From Opitutales bacterium (GTDB lineage Bacteria; Verrucomicrobiota; Verrucomicrobiia; Opitutales; Seribacteraceae), in contig JAOFOL010000004.1 in the NCBI GenBank assembly GCA_028042835.1, forward strand, positions 1 to 64,000: a stretch of 64,000 nucleotides of DNA. Direction: 5' to 3'. The translations under genes were made by a program, and so were the position numbers. The notes below the pieces were generated by a model, which saw only the letters and a list, made by a program, of their open reading frames with translations, did not search any database and had not been told where the DNA came from. Below, piece by piece: positions 28,273-39,683 of this stretch (the stretch's first letter is position 1; each line of letters opens with the position of its first letter).

Positions 28273-31200
28273 ATGATAAAAGAGGTTAAAATATTTATTC
28301 TATTTTTCCTTCCTTTTCTGTTACAGGCCAAAATTGATTTCAATCGGCAGATCCGTCCGATTCTCTCTGAACATTGCTTCGCCTGTCATGGATTGGATGA
28401 TCCGCAGGGTGGCTTACGATTGGACTTTGCTGAGTATGCTTACAAGGGAGGGAAATCACGATTTCCTGCCATTGCTCCTGGAGACTTGGAAGAAAGTGAA
28501 ATTCTCCATCGCGTGGTTTCCACCGATATGGATGACCGGATGCCCCCCAAAGGTGAACCTCTCAAGCCTGAGCAGATCAAACTTCTGCGCCAATGGATAT
28601 CGTCCGGGGCTGAGTATGCAAAGCACTGGGCGTATGTGGTTCCACAAAGACCTGCCTTACCTAAGACACAAGTCCAGGGATTTATAAAAACTCCTGTTGA
28701 TCGTTTCATTTTGGCAAAACTAGAGGAAAAAAAATGGATACCAAGTCGCCCCGAGAAAAAGGAGAAATGGATTCGCCGGGTAAGCTTGGGTTTGACCGGA
28801 TTGCCTCCCACACTCGATGAGTTTGAAGAATTTATACAGGACAAATCTCCCCAAGCCCGGGAAAAAGTAGTCGATCGTCTTTTGGCATCGCCCCGATACG
28901 GGGAGCACTGGGCACGCCAATGGCTCGATCTCGCGAGATATGCTGATTCCAATGGTTTTCAGGCGGATCAATTGCGGGATAGTTGGGCATTTCGCGACTG
29001 GGTGATCAATGCCATCAATCAGGATATGCCTTTCGACCAGTTTACTATTGAACAGATTGCCGGAGACCTGCTACCGAATGCAACGATCGATCAAAAGATT
29101 GCCACCGGTTTTCACCGCACCCCCACCTGTAATGTGGAAGCGGGCGTTCATCCGGAGGAGAACCGGGTAAATCAGGTGGTGGATCGGGTAAATGCCACCG
29201 GTACCACCTGGCTGGGTACCACCATGGAATGTGCTCAGTGCCACAGCCATAAATACGATCCCTTTTCGCAGGAGGAATATTTTGAAATGTTTGCCTTCTT
29301 CAATAACACTCCTCTGGAAGTCGAGAATAAGAGCGGCAGGGGAGTATCCTATGATTTTTGGGGACCCAAGATGGAACTTCCCCTTCCTGCGGATAAACAA
29401 AAGCAGAGGGATTCTCTGAATGCTGATCTTAAGGTTAAAAAAGAGGAGCTTGCCACCCTGCAAAAGGAAGCAGATCGGAATTACAAGAAGTGGACTCAGC
29501 AACAATTGAAAGAAACTCAAGTTAAGGAGTCCGAGTGGCAGGTACTTACTCCCACAAAGGCAGTTTCCGATGGAGGGGAAAGCTTGCGAATCGTTAAAGA
29601 TGGCAGCCTGCTGGCGGAGGGAAAATCCGGAGACAAGTCTACCTACCAAATCGAAGTATCCATACCCGCAGGAATCTGGAAATCATTTCAAATGGAAACC
29701 ATGCTCCATAAGTCGATGAAACAAAATGGACCAGGCAGAAATACCACCAATGCCAATCCCAATTTCGTACTTACGGAAATGATCGTAAAAGTGGCAGGGG
29801 CATCAAAACCAGAGGATTTTGGCCGGGTGGTCGCTGATTTTAATCAGGGAGGATTTTTACCTGAGCAATTGTTTGATGGGAATTTGGATACCCGCAATGG
29901 ATGGGCAGTCGCTCCGGAATTTGGGAAAGCCCATTGGGTACAGGCTGAATTTGCTGAACCATTGGTATTGGATAAGGATTCCAAATTACTCATCGAAATG
30001 AAACATCTTTATGGAGGAGGGCGCAATGTGGGCCGTCCGCGTTTCTCTCTTTCCACGGATAGAGTGCAGAGGGGTGAAGTTGACAACAAGAGACTGCGTG
30101 AACTTTTAGCCAAGGAAAAACGGAACGGAAAGGAAGAGAAGGAATTACGGGCGATTTTTGATCAGGAAAATCCAAAACTTTTAGCCCTCCAAAAGAAAGT
30201 TGCTGATCTTGAGAAAGCCCTTAAGAAAGTCACCCCACCCACCACCTTGGTAATGGTGGAAATGGACGAGAAACGGGAAACCCATGTCATGGCCCGTGGA
30301 AGCTATTTATCCCCCAAGCAAAAGGTGGAAGCGGATGTGCCCGAAGTGCTCAATGACTGGAAGCCGGAATGGCCGAAGAACCGTCTTGGCTTGGCGAAGT
30401 GGTTGGTCGATCCAGAAAACCCTCTCACCGCACGGGTGATTGTCAATCGTTGGTGGGGCCAGTTTTTTGGTTCTGGTATTGTTTCCACGGAAGAAGACTT
30501 CGGATCCCAAAGCGAACCCTCCACTCACCCAGAGTTATTGGACTGGTTGGCGGTGGAATTTATGGAAAATGGATGGTCCATGAAGCACATTCACAAACTG
30601 ATCGCACTCAGTGGTACCTACGGCCAAAGCTCACGCGTGACCAACGCCATGCTGGAGAGGGATGCGAATAACCGGTTCTTTCTTCGGGGTCCCCGTTTTC
30701 GTATGACTGCGGAAATGATCCGTGATAATGGCTTACAGGTTGCGGGTTTACTTAGTTATAAAATGGGAGGCCCTCCCGTCTATCCTCCCCAACCGGATGG
30801 TTTGTGGAGACAGACCGGGCGCAATGAGCCCAAATATATAGCCGCTCAGACGGAGGACCGTTTTCGTCGTGGAATCTATGTGATTTGGAGAAGAGCAGCT
30901 CCCTATGCCAGTTTTGTAAATTTTGACGGCCCTGATCGGTCCGCCTGCCACCCTAAGCGTAGCCGTACCAATACTCCCTTGCAGGCACTCACTTTACTGA
31001 ACGATCAGGCTTATGTGGAAATGGCCCTCGGCTTTGCGGTTTCGATTCTGGAAAAAACACAGGGAAAGTCCGATCAGGATCGTATCACCCATGCCGTCCG
31101 CCGTGCCTTGTCCCGTGATCCCTCTGCCCGCGAAATCAAAGTCCTGCTTAGTTTACTAAATGAACAGAGTGAAAGATTGAAGTCCGACTCCTCAATTTCT

Positions 31201-31326
31201 AAATCCTTGCTTTCCCAGGCTCCCGAAATTGAAATCTCCGATAAATTGGAATCCGACGAAGTGGGTGCCTGGTTCTTTGTTGCCAATGTGCTGCTCAATC
31301 TCGACGAAACCATTACCAAAGGATGA
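28273..31326 (+). CDS. PSCyt1/DUF1549/DUF1553 protein with c-type haem motifs
   Basis: [72 protein letters not shown]. Confidence 0.92.
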
Positions 31327-32759
31327 ATACACACCCAGTCGATCAATATCTTCGTACGCTTACCCGCCGTCAACTCTTCCAACGGGTAGGACTGGGTGTG
31401 GGTGGATTGGCTCTCGCCAATCTACTGAACAACGATCTGTCAGCTGCTCCCCAAAATCCATTCGCTCACTTTGCACCCAAGGCAAAGAATGTAATTTATT
31501 TCCATTTGGTCGGGGCACCTTCCCATCTTGATCTTTTTGACTATAAACCGGAGCTTCAGAAAAGAAACGGGGAGCTTTGCCCCAAGGAAATGTTCGAGGG
31601 CAAACAGCTCGCCTTTATCCGTTCCCGTCCGACCTTGCTGGGCACATCAAAGGAATCCAAATACGATTTTAAAAAATGTGGAAAGTCAGGCATTCAGATT
31701 TCCAATTTACTTCCCAATTTGCAAACGGTGGCCGATGATATGTGCTTCATCCGCACCCTGCATACCGAGCAGTTTAATCACGCACCTGCCCAGATGTTTA
31801 TGCAAACCGGATTTGAGCGGTTCGGCCGACCCAGCCTTGGGGCGTGGACAAATTATGGGATCGGATCACCCAATGAGGACCTTCCCGGATTTGTGGTCAT
31901 GGTCACCGGACAATATCCCGGTGCCGGAAACAGTGTATTTGGAAGTGGTTTTCTTCCGTCCGTATATCAGGGAATTGAATTTCGCGGGAAAGGAGACCCT
32001 GTTCTATTTCTTTCCAATCCTAAGGGGGTGGACGCAACCGCCCGTCGGAAAGTTATCTCCGCAGTCAATCAGTTGAATGAGATGCAGCTCGACGGGGTGG
32101 GAGATCCCGAGATCGCCACCCGAATCAGCCAGTACGAGATGGCTTACCGTATGCAGACGAGTGTTCCTGAACTGAAAGATATCTCCAAGGAGTCACAGAC
32201 TACTCTGGATGCTTACGGGGCAAAAGTGGGCGGTGCCGGATTTGCCAATAATTGTTTGCTTGCCCGCCGTATGGTCGAGCGTGGTGTACGCTTCGTTCAA
32301 TTATTCGATCAGGGATGGGATCATCACAACAATGTGTTCAATTCCCTTCCCAACAAATGCAAACAGGTGGATCAACCGATCGCCGCCCTGATTAAGGATT
32401 TAAAGGAGCGTGGGTTATTGGATGAAACCCTCGTTGTATGGAGTGCAGAATTTGGACGCACCCCGATGGCCCAGGGAACGAACGGTTCTGGCGAGAAAAC
32501 CAAGGCTGGACGTGACCATCACAAGGAAGCCTTTACCGTCTGGATGGCAGGCGGAGGAACCAAGCCCGGCCATGTCCATGGACGCACGGATGATCTTGGA
32601 TACGGAATCGCTGATTCTCCCGTGCATGTGCACGACTTCAATGCCACGCTTCTACACCTTTTAGGAATGGATCACGAACGCCTGACCTACCGCTTTCAGG
32701 GGCGAAAATTTAGGCTGACCGATGTCCACGGCCATGTGGTCAAAAATGTGATCGCTTAA
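31323..32759 (+). CDS. DUF1501 protein
   Basis: [87 protein letters not shown]; 4-bp ATGA overlap with the upstream gene. Confidence 0.93.
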
Positions 32760-32782: not shown

Positions 32783-35482
32783 CTACTGCCCAAGGTTGTA
32801 CAGAGCCTGCACTTCTTCGGCGGATAAGGCACGGTCGTAGATGCGTACATCGTCGATGAGGCCGTGCAACCAGTAAACTTTGCCTTCAGTACCTAAGCTT
32901 TTGCCTATGTAACAGTTTGCAGGTATACCCAAGGCAGTTGCTGGAGTTTCCTTAAGTAATTCAGAATCAACATACATTTTCCAAGATGCACCTAGTTTAC
33001 TAGAAATCACTATGTTATGCCATATGTGAATATCGTGTTCAGACGAAATATCAACTCTTGCATTATATCTCAAAAGGTTGATGTAAAAGAGACCAGTAGT
33101 TGAAAAGTTATAATGAGGGTTTGAACCAGTCCCGAAATGCATTAACCCGCCCCTCCATTGATTATCCCCGTAATCATGAGGAGAAATCACCTTTGTCCAA
33201 GCAGAAAGCGTCGCATCAATCGCTAATGAACTTTTAATATTTGGAAGAGAAACAAAATCATCCACTCCATCAAAACTCAACGATCCCCCAATCTTGCCCG
33301 TCGTCCAAGTCGGTCCATTAGTTAAGTTACCATTATGTCCATTTCCGCTTGAATCATACGCAATCGTTCCACTTGTCTCATCAAACTTCCACCAACTGAC
33401 CAAGCCATTGAGCAAAGCATCAGATATTTTCACCTCAACTTTGTTTGACTCAACACTTCCAAAATCATTGCTCACCACCACGGAATAATTGCCATCATTG
33501 AGGATGGCATTGGCATCGGTTATATTAAGGGTGGTATTGGTTTCACCTGTTAAATCCACACCATCCTTCTTCCATTGGTAAGTGAGGTATTTACCTTCGG
33601 CGGTAACTGAGAAAGTAGCATTGGTATCGGCATAAACTGTCTGAGCCTGAGGCTGTGATGTAATCTCAGGCTTCAGATACTTGAGAATAGAATCGCTGAT
33701 TTGGTCTTTTCCAATTGTTTTACTCGCAATCTTACTCCCCGTCACCGCCCCATCTGCCATCTTGCTCCCTGTCACCGATCCATCGGCATATTCTGACTGT
33801 ACGATAGGTGTACCAACAGGGGCATCGCCATCCTTGCGGTATAGGTCGTAGACGCCTTCCACGGAGGCGTTCAGGTCGGCGGCGAAGACTTTGTTGGAGA
33901 AAATGTTATTTCCAGTAAATCCTGCAACAACATATACTGTATCATTTAAAATTACGGAATCAGCATAGTATTTTGGTTCAGGGAAGTTTCCAAAATGTAT
34001 CCATTTTCTTAGTGCAGGGTCATAAACTTCTATCGAATCTTGATAGCCAAAATTTGATGATAATCCTCCACCTACATAAATTTTACCATTCAAGACCCAG
34101 GTCACAGGGGCGTGCCGTTGAAATGTCAAGGAAGGTCCTGCTGCCCAAGAATTTTGAATTGGATCATAAATTTCTACTTTTCTTGTATGGGAGTTACCAT
34201 TACCACCTATTGCCCAAACCTTGCTATCTAATAAGGCTAATCTTGCACCAAGCCTAGCGGTTGGCATGTTCGCTTTTGCTAGCCATTCATTTGAGATAGG
34301 TGAAAACTCAAACACATTATTTAATCTTTGGTCACTATCATTTATACCACCAATTAAATAAATCTTATTGTTGAAAACAATTGCGTCTGCATGCCTTATA
34401 TTCAGAGGCAACGATGCAACTGATGACCAACTATTTGTAAGCAAATTGTATTTTTTGACACTAGATACATATCTGCCACCAATAAGGTAAAGTTCATTAT
34501 TTAGTATTACAGTACTAACACCGTCTCTATTCTCGCTTAGTTCACTCAAGGTTACCCATTCATTTGTCAATTCCTGATAATATTCAAAAGTTCGGCTTTG
34601 AGCAGAACTATTTTTACCCCCAGCAAAGTATAGTCTTCCATTGATAGCTTCTACGCCATCACCACCAAGTCTCGCCACACTCACAGGAGCCTTCTCCTCC
34701 CAAACCAAAGCCTTAGGCTCACCACGCTGATAAAGCGAATACCCCGCAGGAGCGTCTGAACCATATGGCACCGCAAGCAGACTGCCAATGGATGGAGCAT
34801 TGTAATTTGTAGTAGTCTTTTCCTGATTCAATTTCTCCGTAACTTCAGTAGACAGGCGATTCATACCAATGGTGGCGTTAATGTCTGCTTTGATTTGAGG
34901 AGAAAGTTTATCGCTCGTTACTGCATTACTTGCCAGCATGCTAGATGTAACAGCACCTGCTTGAACAGCCATCGCTGTTGTTGCAACATTTGCAGAATCT
35001 GCTGTTTTTGCTGTTTCCGCATTTTGGGCAGTTTCCGCAGACTTCGCACTTTCAGAATTAAACGCATAAGGAACAGAAGCAAAGGGTCGGTCAGGGCTTA
35101 ACTGCTGAAATCCATTCACTCCGTCGCTAAACCATACTCTCAATTTGGCATCGGTATGCTGGGCAAAAACGGCAGGGTCAATCGCTCCCATGCCCTGCTG
35201 GGCGGTGTTGCCAAGAAGGATAGCATATAAACCACCGTTTACAGGAACGGCAACGGAAGCCTGTGGTTCCGATCCATCCACACTCGTTCCGTCATTGCTC
35301 CAATAGGTGGTCGTGCCATCGGCATTGACGAGGGCGAACTTGAACAAGCCATTACCGTCAAAGGCTTCTCCATTGACGGCTACCTGACCCGCATAATTGA
35401 GGACGGGCGGGACGGCATGCACAGAGATAGCTACTCCAAATAGAAGGATTAGTATCTTGTGAATTAAATACATGCTCCGCAT
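32783..35482 (-). CDS. Secreted kelch-repeat / Ig-like / LamG surface protein
   Basis: Kelch blades (LYLIGGRYVSSVKKYNLLTNSWSSVASLP, IYLIGGINDS), Ig-like TSQPQAQTVYADTNATFSVTAEGKYLTYQWKKDG, LamG GLVSWWKFDETSGTIAYDSSGNGHNG...IDDVRIYDRALSAEEVQALYN. Start set near MRSMYLIHKILILLFGVAISVHA. Confidence 0.88.
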   Translation of the reverse strand: MRSMYLIHKILILLFGVAISVHAVPPVLNYAGQVAVNGEAFDGNGLFKFALVNADGTTTYWSNDGTSVDGSEPQASVAVPVNGGLYAILLGNTAQQGMGAIDPAVFAQHTDAKLRVWFSDGVNGFQQLSPDRPFASVPYAFNSESAKSAETAQNAETAKTADSANVATTAMAVQAGAVTSSMLASNAVTSDKLSPQIKADINATIGMNRLSTEVTEKLNQEKTTTNYNAPSIGSLLAVPYGSDAPAGYSLYQRGEPKALVWEEKAPVSVARLGGDGVEAINGRLYFAGGKNSSAQSRTFEYYQELTNEWVTLSELSENRDGVSTVILNNELYLIGGRYVSSVKKYNLLTNSWSSVASLPLNIRHADAIVFNNKIYLIGGINDSDQRLNNVFEFSPISNEWLAKANMPTARLGARLALLDSKVWAIGGNGNSHTRKVEIYDPIQNSWAAGPSLTFQRHAPVTWVLNGKIYVGGGLSSNFGYQDSIEVYDPALRKWIHFGNFPEPKYYADSVILNDTVYVVAGFTGNNIFSNKVFAADLNASVEGVYDLYRKDGDAPVGTPIVQSEYADGSVTGSKMADGAVTGSKIASKTIGKDQISDSILKYLKPEITSQPQAQTVYADTNATFSVTAEGKYLTYQWKKDGVDLTGETNTTLNITDANAILNDGNYSVVVSNDFGSVESNKVEVKISDALLNGLVSWWKFDETSGTIAYDSSGNGHNGNLTNGPTWTTGKIGGSLSFDGVDDFVSLPNIKSSLAIDATLSAWTKVISPHDYGDNQWRGGLMHFGTGSNPHYNFSTTGLFYINLLRYNARVDISSEHDIHIWHNIVISSKLGASWKMYVDSELLKETPATALGIPANCYIGKSLGTEGKVYWLHGLIDDVRIYDRALSAEEVQALYNLGQ

Positions 35483-35534
35483 GATTGAGTAATTTTTTAA
35501 TTGGGTCAATCCAATGATTGATCCTGAACAAAAT

Positions 35535-36992
35535 CTATTTTTTCTTAGAATTTCCAATCATTTGGGGTCCATTATCTGCAGGCATGGATTTGTGCCAGGC
35601 GATTACTTTCTGCGAGAGTTCTTTCACAATCTTGGGGTGTTTCTTGGCGAGGTTGTTTTTCTCGCCACGATCTTTTGTCAGATCATAGAGGAGTGCATCC
35701 GATCCATCATATTCGCAGAGTAATTTCCATTTGCCTGATCGGATGGCAAGATCGGGCAGGTCTTTGACTCCATAAAATGAATCGCGGTCAGGGGGGCGAC
35801 GAAAGAGGATGTCCTGCTTTCGTGAAGCGTCGGACTTACCGAGTAGAACATCAGGCAGAGATTCTCCGTCGAAACTCGCATTCTTGGGTGCTTTGGTTCC
35901 TGTAATTTCAAGCAGGGTGGGTACAAGGTCGATGGCACTGAAGATGGATTTTTGATTGATCGTTCCTTTGGATTTGTCTGCCATCAGCTTGGGTGCCCAC
36001 GCGACGAGGGATGATCGGATACCACCTTCAAATAAATGGGTCTTGTATCCGCGGAAGGGACCGGCGACCCCGGCTCCCTGTTCGGGACCATTGTCTGAAC
36101 AGGCGAGAATGATGGTGTTATCGGAAAGGGCAGGATCATTATGAATATGATCGAATAGCTTGCCCAGTTGACGGTCCATTTCTTCGAGTACCGAGAGAAA
36201 GAGCTGCCTCTTCGACCCGTCCCTCCATTGATCGACGGGTGGCCAGAATGGGGTATGCACATCATCCGGCCAGAGATTGATGTAGAAGGGTTTCTTGTCC
36301 TTTTTGGCTTTTTGGATGAAGGGTATGGCGGCGTCCACAAAGCCTTCGGTGATTTTGGACCGTTGCATCCAGCGGACCCCATCACCAAGTCGGGTGGCAT
36401 CTCCCCAAATGCGGCCCGGTTTATTGGGGTCCTGTCCGGGTTTTAGGGTAAGGGGGAGCAGTTTTGGACCCATGCCCTCAAAGTTGGTCAGGGATTTATC
36501 AAACCCATAGTCGGAAATGGGCGGGGCATCGGCCACATTTCGCTGCCCCCCCATATGCCATTTTCCAAAATGTCCGGTAGCGTATCCGTTTTTTTGCAGG
36601 GAACGGGCAAGCATAGGGGCTTTGGGGTCGAGCCACTGAGCCATGCCTCGTTTTGTATTATGGTCGCGGTTGCTCAGATAGGAAGTGATTTTCCAACGCT
36701 GTGGATATTGACCGGTGGATATGGCCACGCGGGAGGGTGAGCAGATGGGAGAGTTGACGTAAAACTGATCGAAGCGAAGTCCTTCCTTGGCAAGCCGGTC
36801 AATGTGGGGAGTCTTGGCTGCTTCATTCCCAAAGCAGGAAAAGTCTCCCCAACCCATGTCATCGATAAAGACGAGGATGATGTTCGGTCTTTCGGCCTGA
36901 GTAGAAAAGTATGAAATTAGGAATAAAAAAATAAGAAAAATACGATACACGGTGCTAGGTTGAGATTTCAACAAAAGGAGATCAAGCGTCAA
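35535..36992 (-). CDS. Secreted type I sulfatase
   Basis: NIILVFIDDMGWGDFSCFGNEAAKTPHIDRLAKEG; CSPSRVAISTGQYPQR. Confidence 0.95.
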   Translation of the reverse strand: MTLDLLLLKSQPSTVYRIFLIFLFLISYFSTQAERPNIILVFIDDMGWGDFSCFGNEAAKTPHIDRLAKEGLRFDQFYVNSPICSPSRVAISTGQYPQRWKITSYLSNRDHNTKRGMAQWLDPKAPMLARSLQKNGYATGHFGKWHMGGQRNVADAPPISDYGFDKSLTNFEGMGPKLLPLTLKPGQDPNKPGRIWGDATRLGDGVRWMQRSKITEGFVDAAIPFIQKAKKDKKPFYINLWPDDVHTPFWPPVDQWRDGSKRQLFLSVLEEMDRQLGKLFDHIHNDPALSDNTIILACSDNGPEQGAGVAGPFRGYKTHLFEGGIRSSLVAWAPKLMADKSKGTINQKSIFSAIDLVPTLLEITGTKAPKNASFDGESLPDVLLGKSDASRKQDILFRRPPDRDSFYGVKDLPDLAIRSGKWKLLCEYDGSDALLYDLTKDRGEKNNLAKKHPKIVKELSQKVIAWHKSMPADNGPQMIGNSKKK

Positions 36993-37061
36993 AAAGGAGT
37001 TTACTTTGTTTTTATTATGTTTTGTTATGTAATTTCATTTTTCGCTAACCCAATACCTTAT

Positions 37062-37940
37062 ATGAAAAAGTCACTCGTATCTATATTGTCTGTCTGTTTT
37101 TTCCTCTGTGCATTGCTTTCCGTTTCCGCGGAAGATCACAAACACAAGCTTCATGAAATTGGGGAGCGCATAAAGCAGGCGGTGAAAGCCGGCAAGATCA
37201 CCGAAAAGGAGGGTTGGGCCAAGTGGCATGCGGTGCTTCGTGAACATGGTCAACATGAGGATGATGAAGATCACGACGATTACCATGACGAAGACGAGTG
37301 GGAAGAAGCAGAGGATCTGGAACGCGAGATTGAAATCCGTGAACTGGAATTTGAATTGGAGCGTCTTGAGCATGAGCATGAGATGCAGAGAATGGAATGG
37401 GATCATGAGCGTGAGCGCATGGAGCGTGATTTCGATCGTGAGCGTCGTGAATGGGATATGGAGAATATGCAGTGGGATATGCGTCGGAAGCAGATGGAGA
37501 TGCAGATGCGTGGCGGACCCAGGCCCGGTGGTATGTCACCCCATGGTGCCCGTCCTCCCCATGGAATGAAGCCCCTACATCCTCATCGGGGTTCTGGACC
37601 AAAACCTGATATGCGTCGCGGTGGCCCGCCTAGGGGAATGATGCCTCCCATGAGCCGCGAACACGGGCATGATCATGCCAAAAAGCCTTGCGACTCAAAA
37701 AGGGGAGCATCTTCAGCAGCCAAGGGGAAATCAGATTGCGATGAATCTCCATGCGGTAAGAAGGAAGGAAAGTCCTGCTGTGGGAAATGCAAATCAGGAT
37801 GCGATAAGAAGGAATCCTGCAAAAAGGGTGAATGCAATAAATCGGAGTCCTGCCCCAAGAAAGATTCTTCGTGCAAAAAAGGAGAAAAATCCTGTCCCGA
37901 TAAAAAAGAGGACTGTCCTAAGAAAAAGCGGAAGAAGTAA
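37062..37940 (+). CDS. Secreted charged-repeat protein with Met/His-rich middle and Cys/Lys-rich tail
   Basis: Signal MKKSLVSILSVCFFLCALLSVSA; AVKAGKITEKEGWAKWHAVL motif; E/R helix; 13 Cys in the last ~85 residues. Track start at 36960 lies inside the divergent sulfatase. Confidence 0.65.
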   Translation: MKKSLVSILSVCFFLCALLSVSAEDHKHKLHEIGERIKQAVKAGKITEKEGWAKWHAVLREHGQHEDDEDHDDYHDEDEWEEAEDLEREIEIRELEFELERLEHEHEMQRMEWDHERERMERDFDRERREWDMENMQWDMRRKQMEMQMRGGPRPGGMSPHGARPPHGMKPLHPHRGSGPKPDMRRGGPPRGMMPPMSREHGHDHAKKPCDSKRGASSAAKGKSDCDESPCGKKEGKSCCGKCKSGCDKKESCKKGECNKSESCPKKDSSCKKGEKSCPDKKEDCPKKKRKK

Positions 37941-37976
37941 TTCTTCTCCGTTCTTACTATCCCTTAAATTTTTATC

Positions 37977-38855
37977 ATGATAAAATCCCTTTTCTTCCTC
38001 ACCGCCCTTTTGGCGGGTGCTCTTACCATTTTATTGGCTGATGATCATCGAGAGCGTGAAAAAGAACGAGAAAGGGATGAGCCACGAAGAGAAGTTCGTG
38101 AAAAGCAGGAGAGAATGCATCGGGAATCCAGGGAGATTCATGAAGCGGTAAAAGCAGGAAAGATTTCTCACGAAGAGGGACGCCAGAAACTGGAGGTTCT
38201 TCAGCGAAGACATCACGAACACGAGAAAGAAGTCCACTGGAAACGAGTAAAAGAAGAAGTTGAGGGAGCCGTGCGTTCCGGTCGTATGACCCGTAAACAA
38301 GCGGATGCGGAATATGAGCGTATCAAAAGAAATCAAAAGCAGAAGGAAGAAGTTGCCAGAGAACTACACCATGAAATTGAGCAAGGAATGAGGGAGCTGC
38401 ATATAGCCGTTCGCGAGGGAGAGATCAGCGAGCAAGAGGCCCGAAGGGAAGGGGATGAACTGCGTCGTAACCTGGAGCGTGAAATTCATGCTGCTCATCG
38501 CCGGATTGATTTTGAAGCACAGGAGCAACGGATACACCAATCGGTCGAGGAGGGACGCATCAGCGAGGAGGATGGGGAGCGTCGCTTGGTAGAGATGCAT
38601 CGTAGAATGGAATCAGAAGAGAGAAGGATGGATGATCGGGATAGAGCAGTGCGTCGTCATCACGAGGAAAGAGAGCATCGTGAAGAACGCAGATATTGGG
38701 AGGATGAGGAGGAACTTTGGGAAAGGGTGGCTCAGGGGCTCAAGGCAGCGGTTCGTCTGGGAAGAATGTCCGAGGGCGAAGCCCGTGAAATTTGGGAAGA
38801 GTGGCGCAATCATGAAGAAGACGAAGATCATGAGCACGACCATGAGGAAGAGTAA
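37977..38855 (+). CDS. Secreted charged helical repeat protein (five AV+xG+hSxxEu repeats)
   Basis: Signal MIKSLFFLTALLAGALTILLA; repeat motif starts at aa 57, 98, 144, 189 and 258. Confidence 0.7.
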   Translation: MIKSLFFLTALLAGALTILLADDHREREKERERDEPRREVREKQERMHRESREIHEAVKAGKISHEEGRQKLEVLQRRHHEHEKEVHWKRVKEEVEGAVRSGRMTRKQADAEYERIKRNQKQKEEVARELHHEIEQGMRELHIAVREGEISEQEARREGDELRRNLEREIHAAHRRIDFEAQEQRIHQSVEEGRISEEDGERRLVEMHRRMESEERRMDDRDRAVRRHHEEREHREERRYWEDEEELWERVAQGLKAAVRLGRMSEGEAREIWEEWRNHEEDEDHEHDHEEE

Positions 38856-38894: not shown

Positions 38895-39683
38895 ATGAAT
38901 AGTAAATTCCTTAGATCCACCCTTGTTACCGTAGTCAGTTTATCTATAGCAGTTATTCTACATGCCGGGAAAAAGCCCGAAGAACAAAGTGGATACGATA
39001 AGAGTAAGGATGTTGGACTGAAAGCGCCTAACGGATCGGAGGTCCTCTTTGATGGTAGCATGAAATCAGTAAAGAAAAATTGGGAAATGTGGCCCAACAA
39101 GGATATGGATATCACTTGGAAAATTATGGATAACCCAAATGGGGATGGTAAGACTCTGATGACGGACGGAGGAAAAAAATGGGGAACCCATGACTTGGTG
39201 ACCAAGAAGAAATATTCCAGTTATGAAGGCCATGTTGAATTTATCATGATGGGATCCCGCGGCGACGGAAAACCAGATGGTTACACTAACAGTGGAGTTT
39301 ACATGCAGAACCGATACGAAATTCAGATCGAATCCCCGAAGGGAAAAAATATCGAAGACCCGTACAATTGGAAAATTGGCGGGCATGGGATCGCGGCTTT
39401 CTGTATGGATCGTGTCCCTGACCGGAACGCTTGGAGACCCAATGGACAATGGCATGCCTTTCATTTCATTTTTAAGGACGCGAAGTGGGATGGTGACAAA
39501 AAAGTTGCTAATGCCCGAGCCACGGTTTGGTGGAATGGAATCAAGGTTCATGACAACGCTGAGATTCAAAAAGCAAATGGTGGAATCAAGGTGACTTCGG
39601 TCCCCGGTGGGTTGAAGCTACAGGAGCATGGTCAGGATGTGCGCTATCGCAATGTCTGGATGATTGATATTGATAAAAGTTAG
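38895..39683 (+). CDS. DUF1080 (3-keto-disaccharide hydrolase-like) secreted protein
   Basis: GSEVLFDGSMKSVKKNWEMWPNKDMDITWKI, SGVYMQNRYEIQI, WHAFHFIFKDAKWDGDKKVANARATVWWNGIKVHDN. Confidence 0.88.
   Translation: MNSKFLRSTLVTVVSLSIAVILHAGKKPEEQSGYDKSKDVGLKAPNGSEVLFDGSMKSVKKNWEMWPNKDMDITWKIMDNPNGDGKTLMTDGGKKWGTHDLVTKKKYSSYEGHVEFIMMGSRGDGKPDGYTNSGVYMQNRYEIQIESPKGKNIEDPYNWKIGGHGIAAFCMDRVPDRNAWRPNGQWHAFHFIFKDAKWDGDKKVANARATVWWNGIKVHDNAEIQKANGGIKVTSVPGGLKLQEHGQDVRYRNVWMIDIDKS

What the first reader, a model, noticed from the sequence alone, without database searches (positions are those of the whole stretch)
37062..38855. Two adjacent secreted proteins built from a shared 'AV+xG+(I/M)(S/T)xxEu' repeat
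Gene 1 has one copy (KQAVKAGKITEKEGWAKWHAVL). Gene 2 has five: HEAVKAGKISHEEGRQKLEVLQ, EGAVRSGRMTRKQADAEYERIK, HIAVREGEISEQEARREGDELR, HQSVEEGRISEEDGERRLVEMH and KAAVRLGRMSEGEAREIWEEW, with motif starts at aa 57, 98, 144, 189 and 258. Both have signal peptides and extreme Glu/Arg/His/Asp content, and they are 36 bp apart. The motif looks like a helix-turn-helix pair with a conserved xG turn. I know of no characterised function for it. A secreted charged-helix scaffold or ion-binding pair next to sulfatases is plausible.
Basis: partly seen in the sequence, partly recalled or inferred. Interest (0 to 1): 0.72.

Follow-up and report, generated by a model that had tools for sequence, protein, structure and literature searches.

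The report
Exported tandem SHOCT-like hairpin protein pair
Two neighbouring exported proteins of a marine Opitutales bacterium are built from a small helical hairpin related to the known SHOCT-like domain, here strung in tandem and inherited as a block with a sulfate-removing enzyme, so they are probably a lineage-specific structural accessory to sugar-sulfate breakdown.

Summary
In detail: six copies of the motif lie where stated, and composition-matched shuffles almost never give even one. The motif is not unknown. It is a SHOCT-like alpha-hairpin of about 30 residues. Pfam SHOCT-like models match most gene 2 homologues, one of them above the curated cut-off, while eight shuffles and one reversal give no such match. 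AlphaFold puts all five turns of gene 2, and the turn of gene 1, exactly on the G-x-[ILM]-[ST] motifs. What is unusual is the form: signal-peptide proteins with 3-7 hairpins in tandem. The hairpin profile matches 33 of 42 sampled genomes of one Opitutales family but only 1 of 288 other Verrucomicrobiota genomes. Gene 1 carries one hairpin, a coiled-coil rod and a variable basic, disordered tail. The pair sits in a conserved block (PSCyt/PSD1, DUF1501, sulfatase, gene 1, gene 2, DUF1080). Gene 1's presence tracks that sulfatase in the genus (13/13 versus 0/12), and a sister genus fuses both modules in one protein. Purifying selection is clear. Most likely role: a non-catalytic envelope scaffold or adaptor for the sulfated-glycan enzymes (inferred). 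A conserved metal site is disfavoured because Cys/His are not conserved.

The parts
37062..37940 (+). Gene 1: exported protein with one SHOCT-like hairpin, a coiled-coil helix and a basic disordered tail (292 aa)
   Evidence: matches in 22 of 57 genomes searched, own included; dN/dS 0.11-0.12 where dS is measurable
37062..37130 (+). Gene 1 signal peptide (aa 1-23), read by eye
   Evidence: sequence; conserved position in alignment A2
37152..37247 (+). Gene 1 SHOCT-like hairpin (aa 31-62)
   Evidence: repeat-profile match E 6.4e-12; AF2 helix-turn-helix, pLDDT over 90
37287..37511 (+). Gene 1 coiled-coil/charged helix (aa 76-150)
   Evidence: AF2 one helix, pLDDT about 89-98 over most of it; the same module is fused to SHOCT-like hairpins in L054/L055
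37515..37937 (+). Gene 1 basic low-complexity tail (net charge +21, 13 Cys)
   Evidence: pLDDT about 40-55; net charge +12 to +24 in ten orthologues measured, Cys number not conserved
37977..38855 (+). Gene 2: exported array of five SHOCT-like hairpins (292 aa)
   Evidence: matches in 17 of 57 genomes searched, own included; dN/dS 0.08-0.15 against three relatives
37977..38039 (+). Gene 2 signal peptide (aa 1-21), read by eye
   Evidence: sequence; alignment A1
38118..38213 (+). Gene 2 hairpin 1 (aa 48-79)
   Evidence: profile E 4.6e-12; AF2 turn at aa 60-64
38241..38336 (+). Gene 2 hairpin 2 (aa 89-120)
   Evidence: profile E 3.3e-9; AF2 turn at aa 101-105
38379..38474 (+). Gene 2 hairpin 3 (aa 135-166)
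   Evidence: profile E 6.0e-11; AF2 turn at aa 147-151
38514..38609 (+). Gene 2 hairpin 4 (aa 180-211), best Pfam PF22746 match
   Evidence: profile E 6.7e-11; PF22746; AF2 turn at aa 192-196
38721..38816 (+). Gene 2 hairpin 5 (aa 249-280), the most conserved: ELWExVAxGLKAAVRLGxMSExEAREIWEEW
   Evidence: profile E 1.6e-11; most invariant columns of A1 lie in aa 247-273; AF2 turn at aa 261-265
36982..37025 (.). Conserved AT-rich block between the divergent sulfatase and gene 1 (candidate shared promoter/operator)
   Evidence: retained in 7 of 8 orthologous intergenic regions; no other match within 3 mismatches in the window, one 3-mismatch match elsewhere in the genome
35535..36992 (-). Sulfatase (PF00884, CSPSR motif) divergent from gene 1; the real start is probably GTG near 36950
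   Evidence: orthologue beside gene 1 in all 12 same-genus loci where contigs allow the test
31323..32759 (+). DUF1501 protein of the conserved block
28273..31326 (+). PSCyt1-PSCyt2-PSD1 protein of the conserved block
38895..39683 (+). DUF1080 / 3-keto-disaccharide hydrolase (PF06439) downstream of gene 2

Best explanation
Genes 1 and 2 encode a partner pair of exported, all-helical, non-catalytic proteins assembled from SHOCT-like alpha-hairpins. Gene 2 is a zig-zag rod in which helix 2 of one hairpin runs on into helix 1 of the next, giving five turns. Gene 1 has one hairpin, a long coiled-coil rod and a basic flexible tail. They are inherited with, and probably expressed with, a divergent sulfatase and the surrounding PSCyt/DUF1501/DUF1080 genes. 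Their most likely job is to act in the cell envelope as an adaptor or scaffold that holds the sulfated-glycan enzymes, or the substrate through the basic tail, together. Shown: hairpin identity, tandem architecture, conservation, synteny, fusion, purifying selection. Inferred: export, partnership, scaffold function and substrate.
For: SHOCT-like models match: PF22746 in 10 of 14 gene 2 homologues at E<=1 (best 2.4e-6) and DUF1707 SHOCT-like at 5.6e-12, above its cut-off, in L053. Eight shuffles and one reversed sequence give no SHOCT match. AF2 turns coincide with all six motifs. Ungapped 32-residue unit, Gly in 95/95 unique copies. Repeat profile confined to one family (33/42 genomes; 1 of 288 others has any match). 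Orthologous sulfatase adjacent and divergent in 12/12 testable same-genus loci. Gene 1 presence tracks that sulfatase: 13/13 with, 0/12 without. Fusion of hairpins with the gene 1 rod in a sister genus: 50 and 32 bits against a shuffle maximum of 9.8. dN/dS about 0.1. Published suggestion that SHOCT-like domains help assemble membrane-associated complexes (PMC11237479).
Against: No direct evidence of binding to any partner. The one published oligomerisation test of a single SHOCT domain was negative (PMC3581485). Gene 2 is absent in two loci that keep gene 1 and the sulfatase (L056, L057), and in genera g3/g4 the neighbouring sulfatases are not orthologous, so any partnership with this sulfatase is not obligatory. 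Sulfatases are abundant (70 Pfam matches in the 2.1 Mb assembly), which weakens neighbourhood arguments. No PDB fold match, and pTM for gene 2 is only 0.56.
Confidence: 0.45

Rival explanations
1. Polyanion binding: the main function is electrostatic capture of sulfated polysaccharide by gene 1's basic, flexible tail displayed on an acidic rod, with gene 2 as spacer. It would be a surface or substrate-retention factor rather than an enzyme scaffold.
For: Tail net charge is +12 to +24 in ten orthologues measured, while the preceding rod is -3 to -21. The locus is sulfatase-rich, and sulfatase/PSCyt neighbourhoods in Verrucomicrobia have been proposed to act on sulfated polysaccharides (PMC5615132).
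Against: The tail is absent or very short in L047, L058 and the g4 fusions. Gene 2 is itself net acidic. No carbohydrate-binding fold was found.
Confidence: 0.2
2. Periplasmic holdase-type chaperone: charged amphipathic helical hairpins that bind and protect the many exported sulfatases and cytochromes, functionally like Spy/CpxP or Skp.
For: Small exported all-helical charged proteins inherited with exported enzymes. The S/T-x-x-E helix cap after the turn (S/T in 91% and E/D/Q in 98% of copies) is analogous to the LTxxQ cap of Spy/CpxP (own knowledge).
Against: No Spy/CpxP (LTXXQ) family appears among the Pfam matches shown. Restricted to one family and one locus type, whereas a general chaperone would be expected more widely.
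Confidence: 0.13
3. Metal or ion binding: a His/Asp/Glu/Cys-rich pair that buffers Ca, Cu or Zn for the sulfatase and cytochromes.
For: High His content and a gene 1 tail with 13 Cys in this genome.
Against: No conserved His or Cys in the hairpin. Tail Cys varies from 0 to 13 among orthologues.
Confidence: 0.1
4. Generic charged coiled coil: the repeats are a low-complexity accident without a defined fold or family.
For: Extreme E/R composition and long predicted helices; dN/dS is higher than for the neighbouring DUF1080 and DUF1501 genes.
Against: Shuffle controls, specificity of the profile across 289 phylum genomes, an invariant Gly in an ungapped unit, and purifying selection.
Confidence: 0.05

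Closest known systems
SHOCT domain (PF09851; PMC3581485) and SHOCT-like domains PF22746 (DUF2089-C) and PF08044 (DUF1707)
   Same: About 30-residue bi-helical unit with an invariant Gly in the turn and an acidic residue early in helix 2, no indels in helices or loop; profile matches to PF22746 and PF08044; the last copy of gene 2 lies at the C-terminus.
   Different: SHOCT domains are nearly always single and C-terminal, and SHOCT-like domains are mostly without signal peptides; here the proteins consist mainly of 1-7 copies behind a signal peptide. Gene 2 in the window scores 26.5 bits, just under PF22746's 27-bit cut-off, and PF09851 itself was not matched.
Exported SHOCT-like protein of the response-regulator / histidine-kinase operon in the same bacterial family (L129:8279-9151 and orthologues)
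   Same: Signal peptide plus one or two of the same hairpins; found by the same profile.
   Different: Carries a long second helical region and a conserved RTSDL or RTSE C-terminus; sits in a conserved sigma54 response-regulator operon rather than beside sulfatases.
Spy/CpxP (LTXXQ) periplasmic helical proteins
   Same: Small exported helical proteins with an S/T-x-x-E/Q helix cap after a turn (own knowledge).
   Different: No Pfam match to that family; different repeat organisation and genomic context.
PSCyt/PSD1-DUF1501-sulfatase gene neighbourhoods of Verrucomicrobia and Planctomycetes (PMC5615132)
   Same: The pair is embedded in such a block; sulfatase genes beside PSCyt genes are described there.
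   Different: The passages of that paper read here describe PSCyt genes beside two families of unknown genes but no SHOCT-like exported proteins.

Membership tests
SHOCT / SHOCT-like domain | About 30 residues, bi-helical, invariant Gly at the turn | tested here: met
   32-residue unit; Gly in 95/95 unique copies; AF2 helix-turn-helix at every motif
SHOCT / SHOCT-like domain | Strongly conserved Glu and conserved hydrophobic positions | tested here: met
   Position 20 is E 62%, D 23%, Q 13%; positions 7, 11, 16 almost always I/L/M/V; position 25 mostly W/L/Y/M
SHOCT / SHOCT-like domain | No insertions or deletions in the helices or loop | tested here: met
   22 diverse copies align in 32 columns without gaps; copies were collected with a profile, which favours this outcome
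SHOCT / SHOCT-like domain | Match to curated Pfam models above their cut-offs | tested here: inconclusive
   Window gene 2: PF22746 26.5 bits against cut-off 27. Homologue L053: PF08044 45.9 bits against 27.6, though the score is summed over repeats and no single stretch passed the E-value limit. PF09851 not matched. Eight shuffles and one reversal: none
SHOCT / SHOCT-like domain | Usually a single copy near the C-terminus of a protein without a signal peptide (typical, not obligatory) | tested here: not met
   Gene 2 has five copies along its length behind a signal peptide; only the last is C-terminal
Generic coiled coil | A repeat HMM would match unrelated coiled coils in many genomes | tested here: not met
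   At E<=1e-4 only 1 of 288 other Verrucomicrobiota genomes matched
Metallothionein / metal-binding protein | Conserved Cys or His ligands | tested here: not met
   None in the hairpin; tail Cys 0-13
Spy/CpxP LTXXQ family | Pfam LTXXQ family match | tested here: not met
   Not among the matches shown for the scanned homologues
SHOCT-like domain as envelope-complex assembly module | Demonstrated assembly of protein complexes | not testable with these tools
   Needs binding experiments; published single-domain oligomerisation test negative (PMC3581485)

The most novel reading that the evidence does not exclude
A lineage-specific envelope scaffold system in which SHOCT-like hairpins, usually single and intracellular, are exported and strung in tandem, so that the gene 2 array and gene 1 adaptor organise sulfatases and PSCyt redox proteins into a degradation complex, a distant analogue of a scaffoldin.
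Probability: 0.2. Interest if true: 0.75.

Novelty: new variant of a known kind. Interest (0 to 1): 0.42.

Why it matters
SHOCT-like domains are widespread and their function is still unclear. A family that exports them in tandem, with a fused form and a fixed sulfatase partner locus, offers a clean system for asking what the hairpin binds. It also adds two non-enzymatic parts to the PSCyt/DUF1501/sulfatase gene blocks of marine Verrucomicrobiota, whose function in sulfated-glycan breakdown is poorly understood.

Tried and rejected
Solved-structure relatives by sequence (best E 0.084 and 0.11, meaningless) and by fold (no match below E 2). NCBIfam (nothing above cut-off). Metal site: rejected as the main reading because Cys/His are not conserved. 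PVC-wide distribution: rejected. A regulon sharing the conserved intergenic block: rejected for this genome, since the only other match within 3 mismatches is a 3-mismatch one. Low-complexity artefact: rejected by shuffles and selection. Arg_decarbox_C, TMP_3, HIP1 and similar Pfam matches were set aside as helical look-alikes.

Full report
Observation. The two genes are present at 37062-37940 and 37977-38855, + strand, 36 bp apart. All six motif copies are at the residues given. Shuffling each mature protein 20,000 times gave the core pattern 0 times (gene 1) and once in 3 shuffles (gene 2), against 1 and 5 observed. An HMM made only from these six copies finds 1-7 copies in each homologue, scoring up to 51 bits against a maximum of 10.7 in 1,600 shuffled homologues.

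What the unit is. Collected from the homologues, 95 distinct copies share a 32-residue unit: Gly in all 95, mostly Ala then Val/Ile/Leu four and three residues upstream of the Gly, I/L/M two residues after it, then S/T (91%) and three residues on E/D/Q (98%), a classical helix N-cap. Pfam matches are to SHOCT-like models: PF22746 in 10 of 14 gene 2 homologues (best 2.4e-6; window gene 2 at 26.5 bits, cut-off 27) and PF08044 (DUF1707 SHOCT-like) at 5.6e-12, above its cut-off, in a homologue with six regular repeats. Eight shuffles of two of these proteins and one reversed sequence gave no SHOCT-like match. The published definition of SHOCT (about 30 residues, two amphipathic helices, strongly conserved Gly and Glu, no indels; PMC3581485) fits. 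AlphaFold2 on 14 sequences predicts gene 2 (pLDDT 79.5, pTM 0.56) as long helices broken by five turns at aa 60-64, 101-105, 147-151, 192-196 and 261-265, each on a motif; helix 2 of one hairpin continues as helix 1 of the next. Gene 1 is predicted as one hairpin, one long helix (aa 76-150) and a disordered tail. Nothing similar is in the PDB by sequence or fold.

Distribution. The repeat profile at E<=1e-4 matches 33 of 42 genomes of the window's own family, in all four genera, but only 1 of 288 other Verrucomicrobiota genomes, and that protein has a single copy and no obvious signal peptide. Named relatives are mostly marine Opitutales and other Verrucomicrobia MAGs and single-cell genomes. 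The 33 genomes include some that hold only the two-component-linked relative described below, so the tandem arrays proper are in fewer (gene 2 homologues in 17 of 57 relatives). The exported form is therefore a family-level invention, not a PVC-wide one.

Gene pair and neighbourhood. In the genus, the order PSCyt/PSD1 - DUF1501 - sulfatase (divergent) - gene 1 - gene 2 - DUF1080 recurs. The orthologue of the window sulfatase (73-92% identical) lies beside gene 1 in all 12 loci where the contig is long enough. Among 27 genus genomes, 13 have that sulfatase and all 13 have gene 1; 12 have neither; two (G011, G014) have gene 1 cut by a contig end. This is linkage in one block, not 25 independent events, and the genomes are incomplete. 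Gene 2 is missing in two of these loci (L056, L057), and in L049 and L050 other genes stand between gene 1 and gene 2. In genus g4 (L054, L055) one gene fuses three hairpins, including the 'ELWEEVxxGLxAxxELGKI' type of gene 2, to the gene 1 rod: a gene 1 rod profile scores 50 and 32 bits there against 9.8 for the best of 3,200 shuffles and at most 1.8 for gene 2 homologues and the other hairpin proteins without the rod. In g3 (L052, L053) a gene of 5-6 regular hairpins stands between other, non-orthologous sulfatases. Because this genome has 70 Pfam sulfatase matches in 2.1 Mb, proximity to some sulfatase is weak evidence; the conserved orthologous arrangement and the fusion are stronger. A 44-bp AT-rich block in the divergent intergenic region is kept in 7 of 8 orthologous regions and has no other close match in the genome, so it is probably a shared promoter or operator.

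Selection and charge. Where dS can be measured, dN/dS between the window and three relatives is 0.08-0.15 for both genes, against 0.02-0.05 for sulfatase, DUF1080 and DUF1501 and 0.10 for the PD40-type gene: functional genes under looser constraint than the enzymes. dS is near or above 1 in most of these comparisons, so the ratios are approximate; between the closer pair G006 and G009 they are 0.30 and 0.49, against 0.11 for the sulfatase. Gene 1's tail is basic (+12 to +24) in ten orthologues measured while the rod before it is acidic; the number of Cys is not conserved, so a conserved metal site is unlikely.

How it probably works. Shown: proteins with signal-peptide-like N-termini made of SHOCT-like hairpins, one a tandem array, one an adaptor with rod and basic tail, inherited with a sulfatase block and fused in a sister genus. 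Inferred: that they partner each other and act as a non-catalytic scaffold or tether in the envelope for enzymes or substrate. The suggestion that SHOCT-like domains help assemble membrane-associated complexes is published (PMC11237479), but a direct test of one SHOCT domain found no oligomerisation (PMC3581485). Polyanion-binding and chaperone readings are the main rivals.

Verdict. Of the 14 open-access papers that name SHOCT, two were read in part and describe no such architecture; the rest were not opened, and most subscription papers are not held.

Noticed in passing
L129:8279-9151 (- strand; own genome contig C28, about 12.3-13.1 kb) and L061, L121-L125, L127, L128, L130-L136: A second exported SHOCT-like protein (one or two hairpins, long helical region, conserved C-terminus ...TRTSDL or ...RTSE) lies in a conserved operon: NtrC-type sigma54 response regulator, this protein, an unknown exported protein, histidine kinase. 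All 16 loci keep the regulator next to it; the kinase follows wherever the contig is long enough. It looks like a periplasmic partner of a two-component system.
   Followed up: partly
window 36982-37025: Conserved AT-rich block (TCAAGCGTCAAAAAGGAGTTTACTTTGTTTTTATTATGTTTTGT) between the divergent sulfatase and gene 1, with an AAGT-TT-ACTT-like core in the relatives.
   Followed up: partly
window 35535-36992: The sulfatase ORF as listed overlaps the conserved intergenic block; its real start is probably a GTG near 36950.
   Followed up: no
own genome G000: 70 Pfam sulfatase matches in a 2.1 Mb assembly estimated 63% complete, an extreme density.
   Followed up: no
window 32783-35557 (- strand): A 924-aa exported Kelch-repeat protein with Ig-like and laminin-G domains lies between DUF1501 and the sulfatase in this genome but is absent from that position in the relatives examined.
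   Followed up: no
L046:7924-9547 and L042:9593-10645: The gene 1 tail region varies greatly in length and 3' end between close relatives, in keeping with a fast-evolving low-complexity tail.
   Followed up: no
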